From Bacillota bacterium (lineage in GTDB: Bacteria > Bacillota_I > Bacilli_A > Erysipelotrichales > Erysipelotrichaceae), in NCBI GenBank assembly GCA_018065105.1, contig JAGHTX010000198.1:1-37262 (forward strand): DNA of 37,262 nt, written 5' to 3'. The stretch's first letter is position 1, and each line of letters starts with the position of its first letter. This document shows positions 15,300 to 27,489 of the stretch, one piece after another. Both the position numbers and the translations under genes were made by a program. Under the pieces are notes generated by a model. That model did not search any database. It was not told the DNA's origin and saw only the letters and a program-made list of their open reading frames with translations.

Positions 15300-15336
15300 A
15301 CAGAGAGCTTTATATGGCTCTCTGTTTTCTTTTTCC
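15300..15336 (+). terminator. intrinsic terminator after the GH1 gene
   Basis: A 9-bp stem (ACAGAGAGC with GCTCTCTGT) around an 8-base loop, followed by a T-rich tract. Confidence 0.85.
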
Positions 15337-15376
15337 GACATATTTTGATATATTCTTTCTTAGAACGGAGAAGCAC

Positions 15377-16223
15377 ATGAGCAAAGACAATATACATGTA
15401 CATATTTCTTCCAAACACAATCCATTCGATTTGAAATTAGACGAAGTATGGCAATATCGCGATCTAATCCTGTTGTTTACCAAACGTTCTTTTACGGTGT
15501 CTTATAAACAAACGATCTTAGGTCCATTATGGCTATTTATCAATCCTCTGATTACCTCGATTATTTATGTCATTCTATTTGGAAACATTGCCAAATTGGG
15601 AACCGATGGAATTCCTATGTTGTTGTTCTATTTATCTGGAAATGCACTATGGTCTTATTTCAATTCCTGTTTGACAAATAACGCTTATACTTTTACGGGA
15701 AATGTACATTTATTTGGTAAGGTCTATTTTCATAGACTTACCATTCCTATTTCAAACATTCTAACGGCTATGATTCGTTTTTTTTATTCAAATGATACTG
15801 GTCGTGGTATTAATGTTCTATTACACTATCAAAGGCGCTATCCACGTATCCATTTTACGAATCTTTCTGATTCCTTTTATCTTGATCTGGTTAGGAATTC
15901 TAGGATTGGGATTTGGGATCATCGTCTCTTCCATGACAACAAAATATCGAGATCTATCGGTTCTTGTCGGTTTTGGAATGCAGTTATGGATGTATGCTAC
16001 CCCGGTGGTCTATCCTCTTAGTCAGGTACCTGATTTTTTAAGAAGCATTATCTTAATCAATCCGGTAACCAGCGCTATGGAATTGTATCGATACGCCTTA
16101 TTTGGTGTAGGTACGATTCAGTTCACATCCATTCTTATTTCCTTAGGTATCATGGGAATTGTTGCCTTGCTAGGAATAGTCATTTTTAATCGTGTAGAAA
16201 GAACCTTTATGGATACTGTATAG
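15377..16223 (+). pseudogene. frameshifted TagG/Wzm-like ABC-2 polysaccharide exporter permease
   Basis: Two overlapping frames together encode one ABC-2 permease. The first (15377 to a stop at 16021) reads as family sequence up to the T8 run at 15778-15785: KRSFTVSYKQTILGPLWLFI, then ALWSYFNSCLTNNAYTF and GKVYFHRLTIPISNIL. After the run it becomes nonsense. The other frame (from about 15786 to 16223) continues the protein: VSSMTTKYRDLSVLVGFGMQ and YATPVVYPLSQVP. Removing one T gives an uninterrupted product of 281 aa, the usual family size. It would form the channel exporting a lipid-linked wall glycopolymer or O-antigen-like chain. Start after GGAG. It may be a true pseudogene, a phase-variable gene or a sequence error; the ATPase next to it is also shifted. 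Confidence 0.85.
15778..15785 (+). repeat. T8 homopolymer at the permease frameshift
   Basis: Eight Ts in a row sit exactly where the permease frame breaks. Seven Ts restore the full frame; nine give a stop three codons later. Tracts of this length can slip during replication or transcription and are also error-prone in some sequencing methods. Confidence 0.8.
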
Positions 16224-16232
16224 GTGAAAAGT

Positions 16233-17508
16233 ATGGAAATGAATCAATTAGCGATAAAATTATCGGGAGTAAAAAAACAATATCGTTTAGGCGCGATTGG
16301 CGGAAGAACCCTCCAAGCCGATTTGCAATCCTGGTGGGCGAAAAAAAGAGGAAAAGAAGATCCAAATCTGAGAATTGGTGTAGATGCCCGTTTAATTGGA
16401 CAAACGTTCTGGGCCTTAAATGGAATCGATTTGACCATTCAAAAGGGAGAACGATTGGGAATCATTGGGGCCAATGGTGCCGGAAAATCAACCATGTTAA
16501 AACTGCTTGCGCGGGTTACGGCTCCTACCGAAGGAGAAATCGATATCTGGGGAAGAGTTTCGAGTATGTTGGAAGTTGGAACAGGTTTCCATGGGGAAAT
16601 GACAGGACGAGAAAACATTTATATGAATGGTGCCATTCTTGGCTTGAGCAAAAGCGAAATCGATCAAAAGATGGAAGACATCATTGATTTTAGCGAAGTC
16701 CGTGATTACTGATACCCCGGTAAAACGTTATTCTTCTGGAATGTTTGTAAAACTGGCCTTCTCGGTAGCGGCGCATTTAAATTCCGAAATATTAATTATG
16801 GATGAAGTCCTAGCCGTAGGCGATATGGCCTTCCAAAATAAGTGTTTAAATAAAATGCGAGAAGCGGCAGATGTGGAAGGAAAGACCGTACTTTATGTAA
16901 GCCACAATATGCAGACCATCCGAAATCTATGCCAAAGATGTATTGTCATGGACCAAGGAAAAATCTTCTATGATGGAGATGTCGAAAGTGCCATTGCCTT
17001 ATATATGAATCTTGGTTTAGGAGGAAGTCAGGTAGAAATCGATCTAGACAAACATGCCTATGGAAATCGTGAACTCTATTCGAATGTTCGTATGAATCAC
17101 CTATCTTTGGTAGATAAAGTGACGCCAACCTATAGACGTGGCGAACCTTTAAATTTAGGCATTTCTATCAAAGTCGATCAGCCATTGGAAGATATTGTAT
17201 TTCGAATTGTGTATCGTAGTGATACGGATTTAGCCATTGGTAGCTCCTGGTCACAGAAAATGAACATAGACAAGCCAGGGGAATATGTATTACATATATC
17301 AACACCTTTGGATGTGTTTGAAAAAGGAACCTTCTACGCAACCATCGGCTTATATAAACAGGATGAGATTGGTAGAAACAAACTATTGGATCAGGTGGAT
17401 CGGGCTTTCAAATTTGAAATCCAGGGAAACAATATCTGGAATACAAACATTCGAGGTTATCTGCACTTAGGAGATTTACTAGCTTCGATTGAAGAGATCC
17501 AACAGTAA
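16233..17508 (+). pseudogene. frameshifted TagH/Wzt-like exporter ATPase with C-terminal carbohydrate-binding domain
   Basis: The first frame (16233-16712) has Walker A IGANGAGKS and the Q-loop region ending at SEVRDY plus a TGA. The second frame picks up at 16711 with DTPVKRYSSGM (signature), ILIMDEVLAVGD (Walker B) and LYVSHNM (switch histidine), then a Wzt-type beta-sandwich domain to 17508. Family members read D-Y/F-I-D-x-P-V-K here, so loss of two bases (an isoleucine codon) or gain of one explains the break. There is no homopolymer at the site. Restored length is about 425 aa. Walker A and Walker B fall on separate fragments, so neither alone can hydrolyse ATP. A TTG at 16684 could allow restart of the second half, which I think unlikely to give function. 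AGGTGA precedes ATG 16233. Confidence 0.85.
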
Positions 17509-18023
17509 AAATAGATAGGTTGTAAAAAGGAATATAACAGTTCTCCAAAAGAGATGACACTTCCAAAACTTAAGAATGGGAAAGTGGCAAGGCCAAAGAT
17601 GGCAAATATTCCTAGCAGCCATTTCTTAAAGGAAAGATCAATCATATACAATGGGTGGAACGCAAATTTCACCCATTCTATTATGTATCCAGCAATGCAA
17701 AGGATAGATAACCAAACGTGTAGATCGTTGTAGATTCCATACGTTTCTTTATAGGGAATACAACAAGCAATAAACATGCCTATGTGAAAAAGGGCATGTA
17801 TTTTTTTTGAATACGGCAAGTGATAATAATTCCAAATGGTTGAAGAATAATAGTAGGTTAGTATCGTTGTGCTGAAAGCCCATGTTAAAAACAGAAACAA
17901 ATGATGATGAAGATAGCCCAGTCCCGTTTGATTTTCATAAAAGATATAAATCAAAAAAAGGGGAAGGATATTCAACAAAGGATTGATTATGAAGGTAAAA
18001 AACCACAAATTTAACTTTTTCAT
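17457..18023 (-). CDS. multi-pass membrane protein, unknown
   Basis: A 188-aa, very hydrophobic protein with about five or six membrane segments, aromatic-rich (W, Y, F) and with several histidines (HHHLF, DLHVW). I do not recognise a family. Its 3' end overlaps the 3' end of the exporter ATPase gene by about 50 bases on the opposite strand. There is no ribosome binding site before its ATG, but a good -35/-10 pair ends six bases upstream. It is divergent from the type VII secretion operon, 81 bases away, so a role in that system is possible but unproven. Confidence 0.65.
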   Translation of the reverse strand: MKKLNLWFFTFIINPLLNILPLFLIYIFYENQTGLGYLHHHLFLFLTWAFSTTILTYYYSSTIWNYYHLPYSKKIHALFHIGMFIACCIPYKETYGIYNDLHVWLSILCIAGYIIEWVKFAFHPLYMIDLSFKKWLLGIFAIFGLATFPFLSFGSVISFGELLYSFLQPIYFYCWISSIEASKSPKCR

Positions 18024-18104: not shown

Positions 18105-19070
18105 ATGGAAAACATGATTCAAATATTAGAACGAGACGAAGGACACTTACTCTTACAGTTAAAGGATATGAAAAATTTTGACCCGGGTGTATTTACCCAG
18201 ATGGAGATGGATGAAACATGCATACGCTGTGTGCTGATGAACCAGGCGCTCGGCATTATCTCTTATCAAACACAGGGCTTAATCTCTTTAAATGACATGT
18301 TGTCACAATACCAGTTTAAAAAGGAAGAAGGACTTACATTCTTGTGTGATCTATTTCGAAGTATTATCGCCGTAAATCGAAACAAGCCGATTTTGTTGCA
18401 TCCCGATTATGTCTTTGTGACAAAATACGGAGATTCTTTTCGATTTATTTCGTTACCTATTCATCTAGAAAATCCCTATTCAGATAATGAACAAAATATT
18501 GCCTTCTTACAAAATGTGTTAAAGATCTATCAAGCGCAAAGTCATTTTGAGATTCCCGGTTATATCTGTTGTTTTATGAAAAGTGCGGAGTTTTCTTTAC
18601 CCAATCTAATTCTAGGATTGGAAAATCTGGTACAGGTCAAGAAAGAGAAAAAATTCTTCTTTCGCAAAAGAAGGGTACACTCTTTCCGCGTTTCTGAACC
18701 ATTCCAACCACTCTATAAACCAGAAAGTGTTGAACCAGTAAAGGAAACCGTTTTTGATGATAATAAAACACATCTAATCGGACAGCCACAAACACAATTC
18801 TCTTATCTATTGATCCAGGGAGAAAATGTACCCCTTCGTACAGAAAATGTTTTGGTCGGTCGTTCTATGGCCTGTGATATTCGACTAGAAAACGAATCAA
18901 TTTCATTAAAACACGCTAAGTTAATTTGCCAGGACAACAAGTGGTATATCCAGGATTTAAAGAGCACGAATGGAACGTATCTAAATCATAAAAAGGTACA
19001 AAGAAAAATGCGCCTAAGAGATAATATGCTGGTTCAATTTGGCCAGGTAGAATGTGAATTCCATTCATGA
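18105..19070 (+). CDS. type VII secretion-associated DUF6382-like / FHA protein
   Basis: A 321-aa cytoplasmic protein, first gene of the secretion operon. Residues 1-175 resemble DUF6382, a domain found ahead of FHA domains in Firmicutes: ILLHPDYVFVTKYGDSFRFI followed by SLPIHLENP is the most telling stretch. A basic linker (KKEKKFFFRKRR, 179-190) follows. The FHA domain at about 233-320 has GRS (252-254), S-L-K-H (267-270) and STNGT (287-291), the residues that read phosphothreonine. It probably docks on a phosphorylated partner; the next gene encodes a kinase-like protein. Ribosome binding site AAAGGAG with a longish 10-base gap. Its TGA overlaps the next ATG by four bases (ATGA). Confidence 0.85.
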   Translation: MENMIQILERDEGHLLLQLKDMKNFDPGVFTQMEMDETCIRCVLMNQALGIISYQTQGLISLNDMLSQYQFKKEEGLTFLCDLFRSIIAVNRNKPILLHPDYVFVTKYGDSFRFISLPIHLENPYSDNEQNIAFLQNVLKIYQAQSHFEIPGYICCFMKSAEFSLPNLILGLENLVQVKKEKKFFFRKRRVHSFRVSEPFQPLYKPESVEPVKETVFDDNKTHLIGQPQTQFSYLLIQGENVPLRTENVLVGRSMACDIRLENESISLKHAKLICQDNKWYIQDLKSTNGTYLNHKKVQRKMRLRDNMLVQFGQVECEFHS

Positions 19071-20419
19071 GTCGTTATAAAAAAATTAAAAGTATCCAAG
19101 AAAATGTAGAACAAGTGGAAGATCAAATTACCGGGAAATTGTGTATTCAAAAAAGTGTGGATCAAAATGCACCGTATCTGCTCCTGCATCAATTTCATGT
19201 CGAAGTAGACATTCTTTCTACATTGCATCATCCTCAAATACCAGAAATTATGAATGTCTATTCAGAAACCAATCGTCTAATCTTAGTAGAATCCTTCATT
19301 CCTGGAAAAGACTTTTCTTATTATCTTACGCATTCCTCCCTTCTATTTTGTCTACATCGAACAAGATATATGCTGGAATTGATAGATATTATGCAGCAGA
19401 TCCACGAGATTGGTTACCTATATATTGATCTAAAACCTTCCAATCTACTTCTTTATAAAAATCATGTACATTTAATCGATTTTAACGCCTGCATCCCCAT
19501 GCACTCTTCCCAGGCTGTATTCGCTTCTAAAGAAAATGTATCGGCTGAATTGTACAGTACTGAACAAAAAAACGAAAGCACCGATGTGTATTCTTTCGGA
19601 AAGCTTCTCCAACATGTATATCCACATTCTTTATATTTTTTCATCAAAAAGTGTACAAAAGCGGATAACGGACAACGCTATCAAAGCTGGAAAACCATGA
19701 AAAAAGCATTTTTGGTTCATATATGGTTACGACGTATCTTTTTATCTTTTTTAATCATACTGTCTGTCTTTTTTATCGAGGTACGTTATTTTACAACGGA
19801 GGTGACACCTTTAAACAATTATCGTCAAGAGCCAAACATTACTACTTTTTTTAACGCTTACCAGGATACGCTTTCCCAGTTTTCCGGCACAACGCAAGAA
19901 AAAATTCAAATGAATCTATATCAATGGTTGGAAAAGGATTGGATTCCTAAAAATCTATGGAAAGATACCTATATTGGTAAATTCTTATTGTTACAAAGCA
20001 TTCAATCGAAAAATCCCATTTTGTGTCATAAAGTTCTAGATAAGATTGAAAATACGGAAACCATGGAAAGATATGTACTCCTCGCCAATCATATCATGAA
20101 TCCTGAAAAGAAAATCTTAAAAGAACAGGTGAATGCCTATTTAGCGGACATAGAAAAAGGCGATATTCAATTACTGATGCCTATTCTATTAAACGCAAAA
20201 TACATCCTGGATCCGGAACAAATGGAAAAAGTAAATGCGAGCCTGATACAAGAAAAAGAAGCGTATGAATGTGTCGATGCGTGTACAATTCTAGAATACA
20301 ATTTGTTTCTTAAAAGTCAGAATCAGTCTTGTTTTATAAACATGCAGGATTTTGAGAAACGTTTTGGAAAAGAACGCAGCTGGGAAGAGCTATATGAATT
20401 ATTTGGGAGATCAAAATGA
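19067..20419 (+). CDS. EssB/YukC-like membrane protein with kinase-like cytoplasmic domain
   Basis: This 450-aa protein has the size and layout of EssB/YukC: cytoplasmic kinase fold (1-215), one membrane segment (about 219-242) and a helical outer domain (243-450). Known EssB/YukC domains are pseudokinases. Here many kinase landmarks remain: K29 (VAIK-type lysine in CIQKSV), E46 (helix C), YIDLKPSN with D121, K123 and N126, LIDFN with D138 (DFN for DFG), STE at 164-166 in the APE position, and D173 in STDVYSFG. Missing are the glycine-rich loop and the H and R of HRD. It may bind nucleotide or have weak activity; that is inference. It would be the membrane scaffold of the secretion machine. 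Four-base ATGA overlaps on both sides imply translational coupling. Confidence 0.8.
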   Translation: MSRYKKIKSIQENVEQVEDQITGKLCIQKSVDQNAPYLLLHQFHVEVDILSTLHHPQIPEIMNVYSETNRLILVESFIPGKDFSYYLTHSSLLFCLHRTRYMLELIDIMQQIHEIGYLYIDLKPSNLLLYKNHVHLIDFNACIPMHSSQAVFASKENVSAELYSTEQKNESTDVYSFGKLLQHVYPHSLYFFIKKCTKADNGQRYQSWKTMKKAFLVHIWLRRIFLSFLIILSVFFIEVRYFTTEVTPLNNYRQEPNITTFFNAYQDTLSQFSGTTQEKIQMNLYQWLEKDWIPKNLWKDTYIGKFLLLQSIQSKNPILCHKVLDKIENTETMERYVLLANHIMNPEKKILKEQVNAYLADIEKGDIQLLMPILLNAKYILDPEQMEKVNASLIQEKEAYECVDACTILEYNLFLKSQNQSCFINMQDFEKRFGKERSWEELYELFGRSK

Positions 20420-22140
20420 AACCGTTCATATCATTTATTGTTCCATTCTTCTTTCTTTTGAATCCATCTTCGCAAGAAATCTATCTTTCCCAATCAAAAA
20501 CCATTCACATCGCTACCGATGAGAACATCGATTTTACCCAAAGCGAAATTCTTCTAAATCATAAGAAATTAGAAGATTTACATGAATTCGTGTTCACGGT
20601 AGACAAAGAAGGAAAGAATGTACTGGAATACACTTTAGTTAATGAGGCGGGAGAGATAGTAGAAAAAGGGGAGAGAATTTATATTCTAGATACACAAAAT
20701 CCAGAGATAAAAGTATCGCAAGGATATGTGGAATTCGAAGACTCTATTGGTCTATTTGAAGATTCGAATGTGAGAGTAGAGATCAAGGATGACACATTAT
20801 CGCAAGAAGAGATCTATGTCGATGACAAGCGCACCGAACTTGAGAATGGATCCATCTTTCTTAAAACGGAAAATAAAACCCTCAAAATTGAAGTCAGTGA
20901 CCACGCAGGACACCGTGTAAAAAAAGAATTCAAAATCGAAGTGTTAGAGCCGGTAGAAATGTTTTCTTCTGTTGATTCTGCCTATACGCTGGATCCTACG
21001 TATCAGATTTTTAGTGAACAGGACCTATCGGATTATGAGTTAGTTGTCAATGGAGATGCACAGGATTCTTTTATTTATGATTTTGAGAAAGAGCAGGAAT
21101 ACTTTATTCTTGTGCGACATAAAAGATATCCGGATTTAATTGTCTTCTCACAACATCTAGATTACTACAATCATCCTCTTGAGCTGAACCTGCAAGCCGA
21201 CCGATACAAATCAAACTCTTCTATACATGTTCTTTGTGAAACCCAAAATGAATACTTAGAAGAAGTAAAAATCTTCGATAGCTTAGGAAATAACTATGAT
21301 TTAGGACAATCCATCGAATATAAGGCCAAAGAAAACAGTTCGCAGAAAATAGAGTTGACAGCCATGGCCAAAGATTTATTTGGAAGAGTCGTCTCCAAAA
21401 AGTTAGATTTACAATTAAGCACTTTGGCACCAGAAATGGAACTGTCTCTAAACGATCGAAAAATGCTGGAAGATAAGGAATATGTCTTTGTGGATGTAGA
21501 TTCTTTGGATATACAGAGTACAGCACAAAGAAAAGAAGAATTTAGAGTGGATGGAGCAGTGAAACAATACGTTTCGCTAGAAGCAGCTCTACGTGATCTT
21601 CCCAAGGGGAAAACACTTGCCTACTTCGTCCGATTGGAAGATGAATTTGGAAATACAAGTCAAAAGTTGTATACCTTTAAAAAAGAATACAAAGCTCCTC
21701 TTGTCAGCCAGGAAACCTACAATTCGACTAGAGACGTGATAGAAAGTCGTGTATGGTCGGTGGATGAGAAAGGGGAAGTCAAGCTTGTCGAAAATCACGA
21801 AGAGAAGGTTTGGCATCCATTGATCTATATGGACCCAGAGGAACTCGTAAGTGGAAAACAAGCGGATATTATTTTCTTTAATATGAAAGAGATTAAAGCC
21901 CTTCGTATCAACGGAAAAGAAATCGATATAAGTTCTTTAAAAAAGGATTCCATGGGAAATTGGAAATATACGTATACCATTCCTAGACAAAGTAAAGAGA
22001 TCAAAGTAGAAGTGAAGGATGCATCCAATCAATGGTTAAAAAAGACTAGCTCTGTAAAAAGTGCCAACAATACTTCTATCTACTATTGGATTCCATGTAT
22101 TCTTCTCCTTCTGTTCTTTATCGTCGTTAAATATGTCTAG
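20416..22140 (+). CDS. single-pass surface protein with Ig-like repeats in a T7SS operon
   Basis: A 574-aa protein with a short N-terminal hydrophobic segment (about residues 3-17), a long beta-rich outer region and a C-terminal membrane helix (about 552-572) with almost no cytoplasmic tail. The outer part looks like several bacterial Ig-like units: the stretches DTQNPEIKVSQGYVEFEDSI, LKIEVSDHAGHRVKKEFKIE and IELTAMAKDLFGRVVSKKLD each show the strand pattern with a conserved D/A-x-F/A-G turn. I know no standard T7SSb component like this. It stands where EsaA or EssA would be expected between essB and essC, and neither is found in the window. Role inferred: outer part of the secretion channel or an adaptor. 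Overlaps essC by eight bases. Confidence 0.7.
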   Translation: MKPFISFIVPFFFLLNPSSQEIYLSQSKTIHIATDENIDFTQSEILLNHKKLEDLHEFVFTVDKEGKNVLEYTLVNEAGEIVEKGERIYILDTQNPEIKVSQGYVEFEDSIGLFEDSNVRVEIKDDTLSQEEIYVDDKRTELENGSIFLKTENKTLKIEVSDHAGHRVKKEFKIEVLEPVEMFSSVDSAYTLDPTYQIFSEQDLSDYELVVNGDAQDSFIYDFEKEQEYFILVRHKRYPDLIVFSQHLDYYNHPLELNLQADRYKSNSSIHVLCETQNEYLEEVKIFDSLGNNYDLGQSIEYKAKENSSQKIELTAMAKDLFGRVVSKKLDLQLSTLAPEMELSLNDRKMLEDKEYVFVDVDSLDIQSTAQRKEEFRVDGAVKQYVSLEAALRDLPKGKTLAYFVRLEDEFGNTSQKLYTFKKEYKAPLVSQETYNSTRDVIESRVWSVDEKGEVKLVENHEEKVWHPLIYMDPEELVSGKQADIIFFNMKEIKALRINGKEIDISSLKKDSMGNWKYTYTIPRQSKEIKVEVKDASNQWLKKTSSVKSANNTSIYYWIPCILLLLFFIVVKYV

Positions 22141-25100
22141 TCTCTATATTTATTTTGATCAGGAAGTGCGTACGCTTTTCTTTGAAAAGGAAATTCGCTT
22201 TCGTTCGTTTCAAATCTATATCAACAAGAAAAAATGTATTATTGAAAAAGGAAGCGATAGACGAATCTGTAACGATCGAGGATCCGTCAGTTTTGAGAAT
22301 TATCGATTTATTTTTCACCTGAATCCAGAAGAATGGTATTTACTCGATATATCTGCAATAGAAACCATTGGGCGACAAGCTTCTTGCGATTTATGCATAC
22401 CTTCTTCTCATATATCCAATATCCATGCTCGTATTTATAAAGTGAAAGATGAATACTGGGTACAGGATTGTCAGAGTCGAAATGGGTTATATAAAAATGG
22501 AACCCAAATCAAAAATGCCAAAATGGTAGATATGGATATATTCTATTTAGCCGATCACATTCTTTACTATATTCACGGATACATTTTAACCAACCAAAAA
22601 GTGAAGTCCTGTCCTTCAATTCCTTACTCAAATCCAAAAAATATGGAAAGTCTTCAACATGTAATCCCTCCTGCATTTACATTTCATAAAATTTCTTTAG
22701 AGTCTCCTGTCTTATTAGAGCCTCCTAAAAAATCCAAACTATTTCAGGCCATAGGTCCTGGATTGCTCATATTTTTATCCAGCGGACTTTCTATTCTGGT
22801 CGAAAAATGGATTTCCAGTGCTACGTTTTCAAATACTCGCCTTATTAGTCCTGTTTGTATGGGCATTACGTTTTTATCGTATGGACTCATCAATCGCAAG
22901 AGTACATACAAAGATGATCTGCAAACTTTTATACAACAGGAAAAGTTGTATTTGTCGTATTTAAAAAAGAAAGAACAAGAAATGGAAAGCTCTTTAAAAA
23001 ATCAGGAAGGATTTCTTCAAGAAGAGAAGTTCTATTTCCATAGTCTTAAAGAGAATAAATTAGAAGAGATGAGAGTATTATTAGGCAATCGTTCTTCTAT
23101 CTATTCTTTCTTTCAGGCTTCTTCCATTTCCTATCAACATGAAAACAATTCCCTGGTCCAAAAAGAAAAAGAACTATTAGAAAAAGGGAATCAAACAATT
23201 TTAGAAAATTGTTTCTTTACACCCAATCAGCGTATCTGGATTCCTTTTGATGTAGAAGTCGAATATTTGTACTCGATCATCCTCCAAATTCTACAAGTAA
23301 AAAAGCCGATGAAGGTAGTGATTGGGATGCAAAAGGTGTCAAAGGAAAATAGAGTCTTTGCCTTTTCTCAGTGTATTTATTACGATTCCTTCCTTTCTAT
23401 CGATTCCAATGAAGAATATCTTCTTATCACAGATAGTGTGTCTATTGTACAAAGACTTAACCCAAAATCTTTGATCTATATTTCTAACCAGCCTTTTACA
23501 TTTCCTTATGATCAGAAAGTAGAAAATATAGTGCAAGTCGAAAGAGTCGAGGAAAAGCTTAGAAGTCTTCTTTATTGCCAAAATCAAAACGGCAAGGATA
23601 TCGAATCGTATTTTCAAAAAGGGGAAGAGGAGCGTGTGTATCTGGATTGTTGTGTAGGACTGGATATCGATCAAAAAGAAATCTGGTTAAATTTTCAAGA
23701 AGGGATAGATGGACCACATGCGCTGGTAGCGGGTATGACTGGATCGGGGAAAAGTGAATTTCTTTCCGTATTACTGATGGGATTGATTGTTCGTAACGAT
23801 CCAAAGTATTTTCAATATATCCTTGTGGACTTTAAGGGTGGTGCCTTTGGAACCTCTTTCTATGAGTATTCACACTGTGCCGGGATGGTTACGAATCTAG
23901 AAGAAGAGAATTTAAGTCGCTTGATGCAAAGTCTACATTTTGAAATTCAAAAAAGACAATTGATGTTACAAGAGGCAAAAGAAAAAGAACCCCAGATGGT
24001 CAGTCACATTGACGCGTACAACAGATTGAATAAAAAGAAAATATCGCACTTGTTTATTATTGTCGATGAATTTGCACAAATGAAAATGAAGTATCCCGAA
24101 TACTTAGAGAATTTAAAAGAATATGCCCGCATTGGTCGTTCCTTAGGGATTCATCTCATACTGGCAACCCAGAAGCCCATGGGTGTTGTAGATGAACAAA
24201 TCTGGTCGAATTCAACGCTAAAAGTATGTTTAAAGGTCAACAGTGAAATGGATAGTAAGGAAATGTTACACAATGAGAAAGGTGCCTATTTAAAGAATGC
24301 TGGAGATTTTATTGCCCAAAACCTGGAAAGACAAGTAGAAGGAAAAGCTTTTTATCTTCAAAGTTCGGTATCCCAGATTTCTGACTGGATGGAAGTGAAA
24401 GAAAACACAGAACCTGCAAAGAATCCAACCATATTGGCCACTCTATCCAAACGTATTCCCAAAGGAAATCACAAATGGGTCTTGTTGCCGCCTTTATCCC
24501 AATCCATGTCGTATCTTAAAAATCAATGGGCCTGGATGGATCTTCCTTCTTTACAGCAGCAACAAAGATTGTTTCTAGAAACAGGACAGTCGATGATCGT
24601 ACTTTGTCAATCCAAAGAAAAGAACCAGGAATTTGTGAATACGATGATCACTATATTTAGAGATACGATTCGAACCCTGGGTACGCAGAATTTTGGAAAC
24701 TTTCCAAAGATCGAGGAAAAACAAGCTAGACAAGGGGAACAGACGTGGTTGATCGTACAGGAAAACTTAGAATGGCTCGTACCTTATCTACAATATAAAA
24801 ATCTACGAATTATTGTATTGGTTCGTTCATGTGGTATCAAGATTCATAGCTATTTATCTCAATTTCATTTTAAATGTTGTATCCATTATGAAGAACTGGA
24901 TGTTGTTCGTACTTTTATGGATCAGTTCCAAATCGGTAAAGCACCATTTTTAAAAATTGACAAGGAATGTCATACCGTTCTGTATCCTCGTTTTTTAGAA
25001 CCAATATCGATTGGACAATACAAGAAGGAAGAAAAGATTTTTATAGGCATGGACAATACCAGTCAAACCCCTGTGTTTTATTCACATTCCTCGCCTTTAC

Positions 25101-25429
25101 TGGTTTGTTTCGTACAACAGTCTAAGGAGAGAGAAGTTATAGAGTTTGTTTCCTCGGTTTTAAAAGAATATCCGCATTTAGTGTTGGGAAAAGATATCGT
25201 TGTGATCAATTTATTAAAAGATATAGATTATTTTTCCAGTGGGCTCTATTCACAAATCCAATATGACATCAATATTTTATGGATTGGGCAGGGGATTCAG
25301 GAATATGGATACGTTTTAAAAAGAAGCATTCCCTACGAAAGAGATATGGATCGCATCTTTTATGAAGGAAAGGAAATTAGGAAGTTATTGTATGGAACAG
25401 ATACAAGTGTTTGTCCAGGAATTGTTTAA
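22133..25429 (+). CDS. essC: EssC-like FtsK/SpoIIIE ATPase of type VII secretion, short form
   Basis: The motor of the system, 1098 aa from ATG 22133 (characterised EssC is near 1480). Residues 1-75 look like a degenerate first FHA unit; a second FHA spans about 78-150 (IGR 79-81, SRNG 115-118). Two membrane helices lie at about 203-223 and 235-255. The first FtsK domain is intact: Walker A GMTGSGKS at 534-541, VDFKGGAFG at 565-573, Walker B LFIIVDEFAQ at 640-649, and ATQKP at 678-682. Two later units remain only as short remnants (about 780-955 and 968-1095) with no Walker A; the position where one would stand reads ETGQSMIVLCQSKEK (816-830). The longer frame upstream lies inside the previous gene, so I chose the later ATG. 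Confidence 0.88.
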   Translation: MSSLYIYFDQEVRTLFFEKEIRFRSFQIYINKKKCIIEKGSDRRICNDRGSVSFENYRFIFHLNPEEWYLLDISAIETIGRQASCDLCIPSSHISNIHARIYKVKDEYWVQDCQSRNGLYKNGTQIKNAKMVDMDIFYLADHILYYIHGYILTNQKVKSCPSIPYSNPKNMESLQHVIPPAFTFHKISLESPVLLEPPKKSKLFQAIGPGLLIFLSSGLSILVEKWISSATFSNTRLISPVCMGITFLSYGLINRKSTYKDDLQTFIQQEKLYLSYLKKKEQEMESSLKNQEGFLQEEKFYFHSLKENKLEEMRVLLGNRSSIYSFFQASSISYQHENNSLVQKEKELLEKGNQTILENCFFTPNQRIWIPFDVEVEYLYSIILQILQVKKPMKVVIGMQKVSKENRVFAFSQCIYYDSFLSIDSNEEYLLITDSVSIVQRLNPKSLIYISNQPFTFPYDQKVENIVQVERVEEKLRSLLYCQNQNGKDIESYFQKGEEERVYLDCCVGLDIDQKEIWLNFQEGIDGPHALVAGMTGSGKSEFLSVLLMGLIVRNDPKYFQYILVDFKGGAFGTSFYEYSHCAGMVTNLEEENLSRLMQSLHFEIQKRQLMLQEAKEKEPQMVSHIDAYNRLNKKKISHLFIIVDEFAQMKMKYPEYLENLKEYARIGRSLGIHLILATQKPMGVVDEQIWSNSTLKVCLKVNSEMDSKEMLHNEKGAYLKNAGDFIAQNLERQVEGKAFYLQSSVSQISDWMEVKENTEPAKNPTILATLSKRIPKGNHKWVLLPPLSQSMSYLKNQWAWMDLPSLQQQQRLFLETGQSMIVLCQSKEKNQEFVNTMITIFRDTIRTLGTQNFGNFPKIEEKQARQGEQTWLIVQENLEWLVPYLQYKNLRIIVLVRSCGIKIHSYLSQFHFKCCIHYEELDVVRTFMDQFQIGKAPFLKIDKECHTVLYPRFLEPISIGQYKKEEKIFIGMDNTSQTPVFYSHSSPLLVCFVQQSKEREVIEFVSSVLKEYPHLVLGKDIVVINLLKDIDYFSSGLYSQIQYDINILWIGQGIQEYGYVLKRSIPYERDMDRIFYEGKEIRKLLYGTDTSVCPGIV

Positions 25430-25616
25430 AGAGAAAAGAACCTTTTTGGTCGATTCTCGTTTTACCATGGAACAATTCTTAAAAGAAATATCGGATAGTG
25501 AGCATCATCACTATGAGAGATCATTTTTTAGTATTGAAAACAACTGTTTTGTCGATTTGAAAAAATCATTTCAAGAGAATCATATCGTCAGTTTTGACCA
25601 TTTGGTTCTTGTATAG
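25392..25616 (+). CDS. EsaB/YukD-like ubiquitin-fold protein
   Basis: A 74-aa protein. Start at 25392 (AGGAAG seven bases upstream), inside the end of essC, an overlap of 38 bases. The pattern fits a beta-grasp fold as in EsaB/YukD: a first strand IQVFVQE, a second strand RTFLVDSRFT leading into helix MEQFLKEIS, and a final strand SFDHLVLV. Similarity is by pattern and by gene position only; sequence identity to EsaB is low. EsaB proteins are small cytosolic factors needed for T7SSb activity, possibly touching EssC, which matches the coupling to essC here. Confidence 0.65.
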   Translation: MEQIQVFVQELFKEKRTFLVDSRFTMEQFLKEISDSEHHHYERSFFSIENNCFVDLKKSFQENHIVSFDHLVLV

Positions 25617-25627
25617 AAAGGAGTACT

Positions 25628-25921
25628 ATGAGAATTCAAGTCAACTACGAAGAAGTATTACAAGCTTCTTCTCATTTATCCCAAAAGGGAAATCAATATG
25701 AACAAATTATAAATCAAATTTATTCACGAATGCATGAGATGCAATCCATCTGGCAGGGAAGTGATAACCAGGCTTTCGTTAACCAATTGGAAGCTTTTCA
25801 ACCAAAATTGAAACAGGTTAAGGCCGTTATTGATTCGTATGCGAGCTTTTTAAATGCGAGTGCGCATCAATATCAACAGCTTCAACAAGATCGTATCAAT
25901 CAGGCTCGTCGCTTAGCATAA
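25628..25921 (+). CDS. WXG100-family protein (EsxA-like)
   Basis: A 97-aa helix-turn-helix protein with the central WQG turn at 42-44, the family's defining feature. There is no classic YxxxD/E export motif at its C-terminus: Y82 is followed by Q at +4. WXG100 proteins are secreted as dimers by EssC-type motors. Strong AAAGGAG site; 15 bases before a second WXG100 gene. Inference: it pairs with that neighbour, which does have the motif. Confidence 0.93.
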   Translation: MRIQVNYEEVLQASSHLSQKGNQYEQIINQIYSRMHEMQSIWQGSDNQAFVNQLEAFQPKLKQVKAVIDSYASFLNASAHQYQQLQQDRINQARRLA

Positions 25922-25936
25922 CAGGAGGAATCGAAT

Positions 25937-26224
25937 ATGTCACAAATTCAAATTTCTGCAGAAGATGTCTTATCTTACAGCCAGCAATTATCCGGCCTAA
26001 AAGAAGAAGTTTCAAATGTATTCTTAGAAATCCAGTCGAAAATGAACGGGTTGAATTCCGTATGGTCTTCACCGGCCAGTGAAAAACTTATTGCGCAATT
26101 TCAAAGTTTAAAACCATCGTTTGATCAATATGTAGAAGCCTTAAGCCAATACGCTTTATATCTGCAACAAACCTCCCAATCGTACCAAGAAAATGAAAAT
26201 GCCTTATCGCAAGGAATGCAGTAA
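25937..26224 (+). CDS. WXG100-family protein with degenerate WSS turn (EsxB-like)
   Basis: A 95-aa helical hairpin protein. The turn is WSS (43-45) in place of WxG. The C-terminal helix ends with YQENE (83-87), a good YxxxD/E type VII export signal. AGGAGG ribosome binding site. Its TAA overlaps by one base the ATG of the 57-aa ORF that follows. Likely forms a heterodimer with the previous WXG100 protein and carries the export signal for the pair. Confidence 0.92.
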   Translation: MSQIQISAEDVLSYSQQLSGLKEEVSNVFLEIQSKMNGLNSVWSSPASEKLIAQFQSLKPSFDQYVEALSQYALYLQQTSQSYQENENALSQGMQ

Positions 26225-26397
26225 TGGATCCTTGCAGCTACTATCAAAACCTATATTCTTTTTTATCCAAACTGAAATCGAGTCTGTCTTCCACTTGTAT
26301 GAGTCCGGAAGAAGCACAAGCCTTAAGTCAATCTATCCAGTCTTTAATGAAGTTGATTCAAGTACAAATCTATGAATATCAACACCAGCCAATATAG
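26224..26397 (+). CDS. 57-aa helical protein, likely T7SS substrate partner
   Basis: This short frame begins with an ATG that shares one base with the preceding TAA (taATG) and runs 57 codons to TAG at 26395-26397. The product is MDPCSYYQNLYSFLSKLKSS followed by a second helix with MSPEEAQALSQSIQ and LMKLIQVQIYEY: a two-helix, uncharged-polar-rich peptide with two cysteines. It overlaps the next gene by 26 bases, which would leave that gene without an upstream gene to couple to if this frame were not translated. By position it resembles the small helical targeting partners encoded before LXG-type substrates. No recognised family. Confidence 0.7.
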   Translation: MDPCSYYQNLYSFLSKLKSSLSSTCMSPEEAQALSQSIQSLMKLIQVQIYEYQHQPI

Positions 26398-27169
26398 ATC
26401 TCTATCCAAACAAATTGCTGGGTATATACGTTATGGTTACGTATTTACCACTCCCTCTCTTTCCTATCGTCACAATCAGATCCAAAAGAAGTTATCCTCT
26501 TTAAGCAGTTATTTTTCGCAAAGTGCATCTTCTATTGAAACTAATGAAAGTTCCTTATTGAATTCTTCAAGAGCGGGTGTACAAATGTCATTCAATCACT
26601 ACATCAATTGGAATTCGATTCTTTCTAAGAAGGAAGGGAATTCTTCCGCCAACTTTAATATGAAGTATGCCTACAAAGAGGTTACGGCTTTTCAAATTCA
26701 GAGTAAGTATTTTAATTCGAGAATGGACTTTGACATCGGACAGTTCCGTGCCCAGGGAGATGCTAAGCTGGCTATCTGGAAAAATAAAATTTTGAATCCC
26801 GATCTCTCTTTAGTCGGTTCTTTATACGCTTCTTTATTTACTACCGGAGTAAGTGCGCAATTGGGAAATGGACAAGTGTATGCCAATTTAAATGCCAATG
26901 GTAGTGTTGGTACGGTGTATGCCAATTGTAAAGGGGTACTAAATGTAAAAGAACAAACCTTGGAATTAGGTATTGGGGCGGCTGGAGCGCATGGGGAAGT
27001 CAGCTGCAGTTTTAATGTGATGGGTAAAAGGATCATTCTGACTGGACAAGGATCGATTGGAAGTGCGGAAGCAAACATTAGCTATTCCCATAAAAATCGT
27101 GAATGGGAATTTGGAAGTAAACTTGGCTTTATTGCCGGTCTGGGATTTAAGGTACATGTGAATTATTAA
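26372..27169 (+). CDS. candidate T7SS-secreted protein with glycine-rich beta C-terminus
   Basis: A 265-aa protein. Residues 1-80 are helical, Ser/Gln-rich and resemble a short WXG/LXG-like targeting region, though I see no clear WxG or LxG motif. From about 130 on, alternating strands with Gly, Ala, Ser and Asn (VSAQLGNGQVYANLNANGSV, GIGAAGAHGEVSCSF, LTGQGSIGSAEANISYSH) predict a regular beta-solenoid or barrel-like fold. There is no signal peptide. Its place between WXG100-type genes and DUF4176 suggests a substrate of this secretion system. No immunity gene is evident unless the DUF4176 protein fills that role, so toxicity is not supported. Its start has no ribosome binding site and overlaps the 57-aa ORF. 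Confidence 0.65.
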   Translation: MNINTSQYRSLSKQIAGYIRYGYVFTTPSLSYRHNQIQKKLSSLSSYFSQSASSIETNESSLLNSSRAGVQMSFNHYINWNSILSKKEGNSSANFNMKYAYKEVTAFQIQSKYFNSRMDFDIGQFRAQGDAKLAIWKNKILNPDLSLVGSLYASLFTTGVSAQLGNGQVYANLNANGSVGTVYANCKGVLNVKEQTLELGIGAAGAHGEVSCSFNVMGKRIILTGQGSIGSAEANISYSHKNREWEFGSKLGFIAGLGFKVHVNY

Positions 27170-27183
27170 AGGAGGGATAAAGA

Positions 27184-27456
27184 ATGAAAGAATTTTTACC
27201 TTTGGGAAGTGTCGTTACATTAAAGAATGGTACAAAACGTGTAATGATTGTTGGTCGTCTACAAAGTAAAACGGGAGAAGAAGACATCTACGATTACGCT
27301 TCTGTGCTCTGGCCAGAAGGGTTAGTGGATTCGTCGCATTTCTATTTGTTTAACCAGGAAGATATTGAGTGTATGTATCATGTTGGTTTACAGGACATAG
27401 AAGAATTTAACTTTCGTTTTCGTTTAGAAGAAGAATGTAAAAAAATACGAGTATAA
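27184..27456 (+). CDS. DUF4176-family T7SS accessory protein
   Basis: A 90-aa cytosolic protein. The N-terminus FLPLGSVVTLKNGTKRVMIV, then GRLQ, YDYASVLWPEG and the FNQEDIECMYHVGLQDIEE end fit DUF4176, a small SH3-like beta family found at T7SSb loci of Firmicutes. Members encoded beside LXG effectors in streptococci act as substrate accessory factors; here the likely client is the 265-aa protein just upstream (gap 14 bases, AAGGAGG site). Last gene of the operon, ending at a terminator. Confidence 0.85.
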   Translation: MKEFLPLGSVVTLKNGTKRVMIVGRLQSKTGEEDIYDYASVLWPEGLVDSSHFYLFNQEDIECMYHVGLQDIEEFNFRFRLEEECKKIRV

Positions 27457-27460
27457 AAAA

Positions 27461-27489
27461 GAGCTACATTTCGTAGCTCAATTTTTTTT
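27461..27489. terminator. bidirectional terminator between T7SS operon and foldase genes
   Basis: A 7-bp perfect stem (GAGCTAC with GTAGCTC, 5-base loop) has a run of Ts on the plus side (27482-27489) and a run of As on the left, which gives Ts on the minus strand. It can end both convergent units. Confidence 0.88.

What the first reader, a model, noticed from the sequence alone, without database searches (positions are those of the whole stretch)
18105..27456. Compact, divergent type VII secretion locus lacking EsaA and EssA
Ten genes, mostly overlapping, carry EssC-, EssB-, EsaB- and WXG100-like proteins and DUF4176. No EsaA (multi-pass, with large outer domain) or EssA is present. Instead there is a DUF6382-like/FHA protein at the front and an Ig-like single-pass protein. 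The locus is complete at both ends (divergent gene on the left, bidirectional terminator on the right), so the missing parts were not cut off by the window. It may be a separate T7SSb subtype.
Basis: partly seen in the sequence, partly recalled or inferred. Interest (0 to 1): 0.85.

Follow-up and report, generated by a model that had tools for sequence, protein, structure and literature searches.

The report
Stripped-down type VII secretion system
A common gut-bacterial family carries a small, fixed protein-export machine of the type VII kind that belongs with a published subtype (T7SSe) rather than the textbook Staphylococcus/Bacillus one, but has shed several parts and seems to serve one conserved cargo instead of a changing set of toxins.

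Summary
The ten genes are real, intact and at the stated coordinates. The genome has no detectable EsaA, EssA or EssB/YukC. The "EssB-like" gene is not YukC: it is a TseD-type membrane kinase. Gene content (DUF6382/FHA protein, kinase, Ig-chain protein, FHA-EssC, small ubiquitin-like candidate, two WXG100 proteins) matches T7SSe as published by Garrett et al. 2024 (PMC11217815), so "separate T7SSb subtype" is superseded. Strict T7SSe membership fails: the phosphatase (TseF) and the small membrane proteins TseH/TseK are missing from the locus. The same order recurs in 15 loci of Erysipelotrichaceae (Floccifex, Holdemanella, Faecalicoccus, Absicoccus, Catenisphaera, Faecalitalea), mostly at one chromosomal site, and relatives form a reduction series from phosphatase-bearing to kinase-less loci. 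New here: the lineage itself; a kinase that lost its glycine loop and DFG glycine while phosphothreonine-binding residues of both FHA domains stay; one conserved ATPase site; and a slowly evolving, non-polymorphic helix-plus-beta protein (26372-27169) that is the only non-WXG cargo candidate, since the genomes hold two WXG100 genes and no recognisable LXG protein. Verdict: new reduced variant of a known kind. Function is inferred.

The parts
18105..19070 (+). TseJ-like protein: weak DUF6382 N-terminus, C-terminal FHA domain with all phosphothreonine-binding residues
   Evidence: FHA 3.8e-20, DUF6382 8.7e-4 below cut-off; G-R-S-H-N kept in all relatives
19067..20419 (+). TseD-like membrane kinase: cytoplasmic kinase fold, one transmembrane helix (~213-240), extracellular helical C-terminus; glycine loop lost, DFG changed to DFN, K29/E46/D121/K123/D138 kept
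   Evidence: Pkinase 3.6e-19; alignments; profile comparison with T7SSe-like kinases 99.9%, with YukC 0.2%
20416..22140 (+). TseI-like protein: N-terminal signal/anchor, chain of Ig-like domains, C-terminal transmembrane helix
   Evidence: AlphaFold2 pLDDT 87; Foldseek to Ig-domain chains, E to 4e-11; homologous to the Ig protein of phosphatase-bearing loci 99.4%
22133..25429 (+). TseC/EssC-like FHA + FtsK ATPase, 1098 aa; Walker A only in the first ATPase domain, downstream ATPase domains short and without Walker A
   Evidence: FtsK 1.1e-20, FHA 5.2e-13, TIGR03928 6.8e-80; motif scan and alignment
25392..25616 (+). small protein in the TseB/EsaB position (ubiquitin-like by position and length; sequence test negative)
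   Evidence: no Pfam hit; same place and size in relatives
25628..25921 (+). WXG100 protein A1 (WQG turn)
   Evidence: PF06013 1.3e-13
25937..26224 (+). WXG100 protein A2 (W-S-S turn, conserved C-terminal YxxxE)
   Evidence: PF06013 4.3e-11; alignment
26224..26397 (+). 57-aa helical protein, candidate secretion partner of the next gene
   Evidence: recurs in 13 of 14 other complete loci; dN/dS 0.07-0.6
26372..27169 (+). 'X': conserved candidate cargo; N-terminal helical hairpin and long amphipathic beta-strand domain; no known family
   Evidence: no Pfam/NCBIfam family; model pLDDT 70; found in 40/273 family genomes; dN/dS 0.04-0.20
27184..27456 (+). DUF4176 protein, accessory of unknown function
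   Evidence: PF13780 1e-28
27461..27479 (.). terminator-like stem-loop with T runs on both strands
17457..18023 (-). divergent conserved membrane protein on the left, kept beside the locus in most relatives (not part of the machine)

Best explanation
The locus encodes a reduced secretion machine of the T7SSd/e/j group, nearest T7SSe. Proposed working: the membrane ATPase (TseC-like, one ATPase site) captures the A1:A2 WXG100 pair through the C-terminal YxxxE of A2, and the 265-aa protein X, whose helical N-terminus pairs with A2 and/or the 57-aa protein, and pushes them across the membrane. The Ig-chain protein stands through the wall in the place EsaA has in T7SSb. Assembly or activity is set by threonine phosphorylation that the FHA domains of TseJ and TseC read; the phosphate comes from the membrane kinase in the locus or from the housekeeping PrkC-type kinase. 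X is the fixed cargo, a surface or membrane protein rather than a variable toxin. Shown: gene content, homology, recurrence, motif states, purifying selection, absence of other WXG100 or recognisable LXG proteins. Inferred: secretion, pairing, wall crossing, phospho-control, the role of X.
For: Gene set equals TseJ-D-I-C-(B)-A-A2 of PMC11217815 by domains. D and I are homologous to their counterparts in g53 loci that also have the PPM phosphatase and the order J-F-D-I-C-B-A1-A2-x-X-DUF4176. Same order in 15 loci, usually between the same neighbours. FHA phosphothreonine residues kept nearly everywhere. A PrkC/PrpC pair lies elsewhere in the genome. Only two WXG100 genes per compact genome and no LXG match. 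X, WXG100s and DUF4176 evolve slowest, with dN/dS well below 1. YxxxE in A2 of all loci aligned.
Against: TseF, TseH and TseK are missing from the locus; TseH/TseK could not be sought genome-wide. The B gene has no family match. No named T7SSe ATPase was in the tree, so placement among published clades is untested, and the branch joining all X-bearing loci has low support (35). Altered kinase motifs leave its activity open. No secretion data exist.
Confidence: 0.8

Rival explanations
1. A degenerate T7SSb (ess/yuk) locus that lost EsaA and EssA and whose EssB has diverged.
For: EssC with an N-terminal FHA domain scores best with TIGR03928, the Firmicutes EssC model; WXG100, EsaB-sized gene and DUF4176 are also common in T7SSb loci.
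Against: Kinase gene shows no homology to YukC but 99.9% to the kinases of phosphatase-bearing loci; Ig-chain and DUF6382/FHA genes are not T7SSb parts; true T7SSb loci with YukC exist in the same order and look different.
Confidence: 0.06
2. [quoted passage not shown]
For: Order WXG100 - small helical protein - helical/beta protein - DUF4176 resembles T7SSb effector modules, where DUF4176 genes often sit; X beta region is strongly amphipathic (z 5.1) and its best structural matches are pore formers, though not significant (E 1.8e-3, prob 0.18).
Against: X is conserved to its last residues across genera, under purifying selection, single copy, without a variable C-terminus or a candidate immunity gene; no LXG match.
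Confidence: 0.25
3. A decaying, no longer functional system.
For: Series of losses: phosphatase, kinase motifs, later ATPase sites, and in Merdibacter kinase and Ig protein.
Against: All ten reading frames intact in many genera, dN/dS well below 1 in nearly all genes and pairs, invariant Walker A lysine and Walker B of the first ATPase, fixed chromosomal site.
Confidence: 0.05

Closest known systems
T7SSe (Garrett, Higginson & Palmer 2024, PMC11217815)
   Same: TseJ (DUF6382+FHA), TseD (membrane kinase), TseI (Ig-like, C-terminal membrane helix), TseC with FHA and kept phosphothreonine motif, TseB position, two WXG100 proteins, Bacillota
   Different: No TseF, TseH or TseK in the locus; kinase lacks glycine loop and has DFN; single Walker A; short ATPase and Ig protein; X, 57-aa protein and DUF4176 as constant parts
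T7SSd (Actinomycetota)
   Same: A, C, D, I present; few components
   Different: This locus is in Bacillota, has J, a B-position gene and two WXG100 proteins, no H
T7SSj (Clostridium)
   Same: J, D, I, C, B; no TseH
   Different: T7SSj has TsjF and TsjK and one core WXG100
T7SSb (S. aureus Ess, B. subtilis Yuk)
   Same: FHA-EssC, WXG100, small EsaB-position protein, DUF4176 often present
   Different: No EsaA, EssA or YukC
J-F-D-I-C-B-A1-A2-x-X-DUF4176 loci of genus g53 (L099, L100, L137)
   Same: Same order plus PPM phosphatase, same left neighbour, homologous D and I, X and DUF4176
   Different: Canonical kinase motifs, longer ATPase (~1305 aa) and Ig protein (850-1042 aa)

Membership tests
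T7SSb | EssC-type FHA/FtsK ATPase | tested here: met
T7SSb | EssB/YukC | tested here: not met
   none in 33 X-bearing genomes while found in two T7SSb relatives; profile comparison 0.2%
T7SSb | EsaA/YueB | tested here: not met
   TIGR03929 absent in own genome, control B. subtilis over cut-off; no multi-pass protein in the locus
T7SSb | EssA | tested here: inconclusive
   PF10661 absent but also missed in two YukC-bearing relatives
T7SSe | two WXG100 proteins TseA/TseA2 | tested here: met
T7SSe | TseC ATPase with FHA and phosphothreonine-binding residues | tested here: met
T7SSe | TseD membrane-anchored Ser/Thr kinase | tested here: met
   catalytic motifs altered
T7SSe | TseI Ig-chain protein with C-terminal membrane helix | tested here: met
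T7SSe | TseJ DUF6382 + FHA | tested here: met
   FHA strong, DUF6382 below cut-off
T7SSe | TseB ubiquitin-like protein | tested here: inconclusive
   position and size fit, no Pfam hit
T7SSe | TseF PPM phosphatase at the locus | tested here: not met
   only PP2C match in the genome is the gene beside PrkC at C154
T7SSe | TseH and TseK small membrane proteins at the locus | tested here: not met
   genes overlap or lie 11-15 bp apart, no room; rest of genome not testable
T7SSe | ATPase clusters with published TseC sequences | not tested
   no named TseC reference available; own tree shows only that the 14 compact rows in it form one clade (99)
T7SSd | Actinomycetota, no ubiquitin-like gene, TsdH present | tested here: not met
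   Erysipelotrichaceae; no room for H
T7SSj | TsjF and TsjK present | tested here: not met

The most novel reading that the evidence does not exclude
A dedicated, vertically inherited T7SS with a single fixed cargo (X plus the A1:A2 pair), doing an envelope or colonisation task rather than toxin delivery, in which the locus-encoded kinase has become atypical, and been lost in Merdibacter, while the FHA readers are kept and may now be driven by the housekeeping PrkC.
Probability: 0.35. Interest if true: 0.7.

Novelty: new variant of a known kind. Interest (0 to 1): 0.5.

Why it matters
It gives the T7SSd/e/j group a compact member in cultured gut commensals, with a natural series of part losses that shows which parts are dispensable (phosphatase, kinase motifs, later ATPase sites, even kinase and Ig protein) and which are not (FHA readers, first ATPase, WXG100 pair, X, DUF4176). 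It also offers a case of a T7SS without variable toxins, so the question of what T7SS does besides antagonism becomes testable in one operon.

Tried and rejected
T7SSb with diverged EssB: rejected by profile comparison. Deletion of a standard locus: rejected because the order is shared by many genera. Missing parts elsewhere in the genome: EsaA, EssA, YukC and a second PP2C not found. Second EssC: the other match looks like a FtsK/SpoIIIE-type protein of the kind found in nearly every relative. A single-sequence genome-contig scan with the ATPase gave nothing; the X alignment gave 20 named loci. Structure search with X gave no significant match, and its C-terminal 30 residues are modelled poorly. 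DUF6382 as a T7SS marker: rejected, two DUF6382/FHA genes lie in unrelated neighbourhoods of this genome. Phylum search with DUF6382 found no loci outside the family. No Rfam RNA in the window.

Full report
What is there. The window is contig C216 of a 244-contig draft genome; its relatives of the same genus include Floccifex porci, so it belongs to the Erysipelotrichaceae. Ten co-directional genes run from 18105 to 27456. Neighbours overlap by 4, 4, 8, 38, 1 and 26 bp or are spaced by 11, 15 and 14 bp. Order: FHA/DUF6382 protein (J), membrane kinase (D), Ig-chain protein (I), FHA-FtsK ATPase (C), small protein (B), two WXG100 proteins (A1, A2), 57-aa protein, 265-aa protein (X), DUF4176. A divergent gene lies on the left and a stem-loop with T runs on both strands on the right.

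Missing T7SSb parts. EssA (PF10661) and the EsaA N-terminus (TIGR03929) give no match in the genome. YukC/EssB (PF10140) is absent from the window's genome and from all X-bearing genomes tested, though it is found in two T7SSb-bearing relatives. The EssA result is weak, because the same model misses those two relatives as well. Profile comparison gives 99.9% probability with the kinases of phosphatase-bearing and other long-locus relatives and 0.2% with YukC.

What it matches. Garrett, Higginson and Palmer (2024, PMC11217815) describe T7SSc-T7SSj. Their T7SSe has TseA, TseA2, TseB, TseC (FHA with phosphothreonine motif), TseD (membrane kinase), TseF (PPM phosphatase), TseH, TseI (Ig-like, C-terminal membrane helix), TseJ (DUF6382 + FHA) and TseK. 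Seven of the genes here fit: J, D, I, C, A1 and A2 by sequence or structure, and B by position only. The Ig protein was modelled at mean pLDDT 87 and matches chains of Ig domains. TseF, TseH and TseK are missing from the locus. So it works like a T7SSe and resembles it part by part, but does not meet the published component list. The paper's main text names no Erysipelotrichaceae.

Recurrence and reduction. The same order is complete in 15 loci including the window: Floccifex, Holdemanella, Faecalicoccus, Absicoccus, Catenisphaera, Faecalitalea and others; one of them (Catenisphaera) has no detected 57-aa gene. Most share the left neighbour and, on the right, two PrsA-like genes and sufC, which points to vertical descent. 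X is found in 40 of 273 family genomes, 19 of 60 genera. Genus g53 (L099, L100, L137) has the same locus with a PPM phosphatase between J and D, a canonical kinase and, in L099, a 68-aa single-helix gene before I. L092, L096 and L098 show no phosphatase in the locus but keep canonical kinase motifs. The compact loci lack the phosphatase and have altered kinases. Merdibacter loci (L116-L118), L046 and L090 have lost both D and I. In an ATPase tree the 14 compact rows form one clade (SH-aLRT 99); the branch uniting all X-bearing loci has support of only 35, so a single linear series is suggested, not shown.

Motif states. In every compact locus the kinase has no glycine loop and DFN instead of DFG, but keeps the lysine, the helix-C glutamate, the catalytic aspartate and the DF aspartate (K29, E46, D121, K123, D138 invariant). 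Loci outside the compact clade that have the kinase keep GxG and DFG. It may thus be an atypical rather than a dead kinase. The phosphothreonine-contacting residues of the FHA domains of J and C are kept almost without exception, even where the kinase gene is gone. The genome has a PrkC/PrpC pair at another site, which could supply the phosphate; that is inference. Walker A occurs only in the first ATPase domain, here and in all X-bearing relatives scanned, including g53.

Cargo. A1 has a WQG turn; A2 has W-S-S and a C-terminal YxxxE kept in all loci aligned. The nine compact genomes checked each hold exactly two WXG100 genes and no LXG match. X has an N-terminal helical hairpin and long beta strands (model pLDDT 70, C-terminal 30 residues unreliable), no known family, alternate-residue amphipathicity (z 5.1) and no significant structural match. 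X, the WXG100s and DUF4176 have the lowest dN/dS (0.01-0.05 in the Faecalicoccus pair), C, I and D higher (0.10-0.16). Many dS values are near or above 1, so the ratios are rough. This is the opposite of a polymorphic toxin. [quoted passage not shown]

Proposed working. ATPase C exports the A1:A2 pair and X; I spans the wall; J and C read threonine phosphorylation by D or PrkC. Export, pairing, wall crossing and phospho-control are inferred from homology and anatomy; none was tested.

Verdict. The interpretation needs to move from 'new T7SSb subtype' to 'reduced relative of published T7SSe'. Novel parts are the lineage, the losses, and the fixed cargo X.

Noticed in passing
15314-17508: An ABC-2-type permease and its ATP-binding partner (teichoic-acid/polysaccharide exporter type, by reading the sequence) are each split over two overlapping reading frames (15314-16021/15792-16223 and 16224-16712/16684-17508), suggesting frameshifts or assembly errors.
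   Followed up: no
L042, L173, L175, L040: Another T7SS arrangement in the same family: A1-A2-(643-709 aa single-helix protein, weak Ig hint)-ATPase-B, in L042 and L173 next to an IF-2 gene, without J, D, X or YukC; the large protein is not detectably homologous to I.
   Followed up: partly
L168-L172, L174 (class-level family f11): Small genomes (0.9-1.6 Mb) with ~1500-aa TsxC ATPases and mostly WXG100 genes but no detected YukC, J, D or I in the fetched 12-20 kb.
   Followed up: partly
L136 and L099 (genome G142): One genome carries two different T7SS loci: the T7SSe-like one and a larger one with J, PPM phosphatase, kinase, a 1660-aa Ig protein, a second FHA protein, a 351-aa gene in the place of the ParA/TadZ-like ATPase gene of L045, B and the ATPase.
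   Followed up: partly
L116-L118, L046, L090: Loci that keep J, ATPase, B, WXG100 pair, X and DUF4176 but have lost kinase and Ig protein.
   Followed up: partly
L134:7790-9409, L135:452-1636: Two further DUF6382/FHA proteins of the window's genome in neighbourhoods without T7SS genes, so this domain pair is not a T7SS marker.
   Followed up: yes
L121: Ileibacterium valens has the locus split: A1-A2-X-DUF4176 on one strand, ATPase and Ig protein on the other.
   Followed up: no
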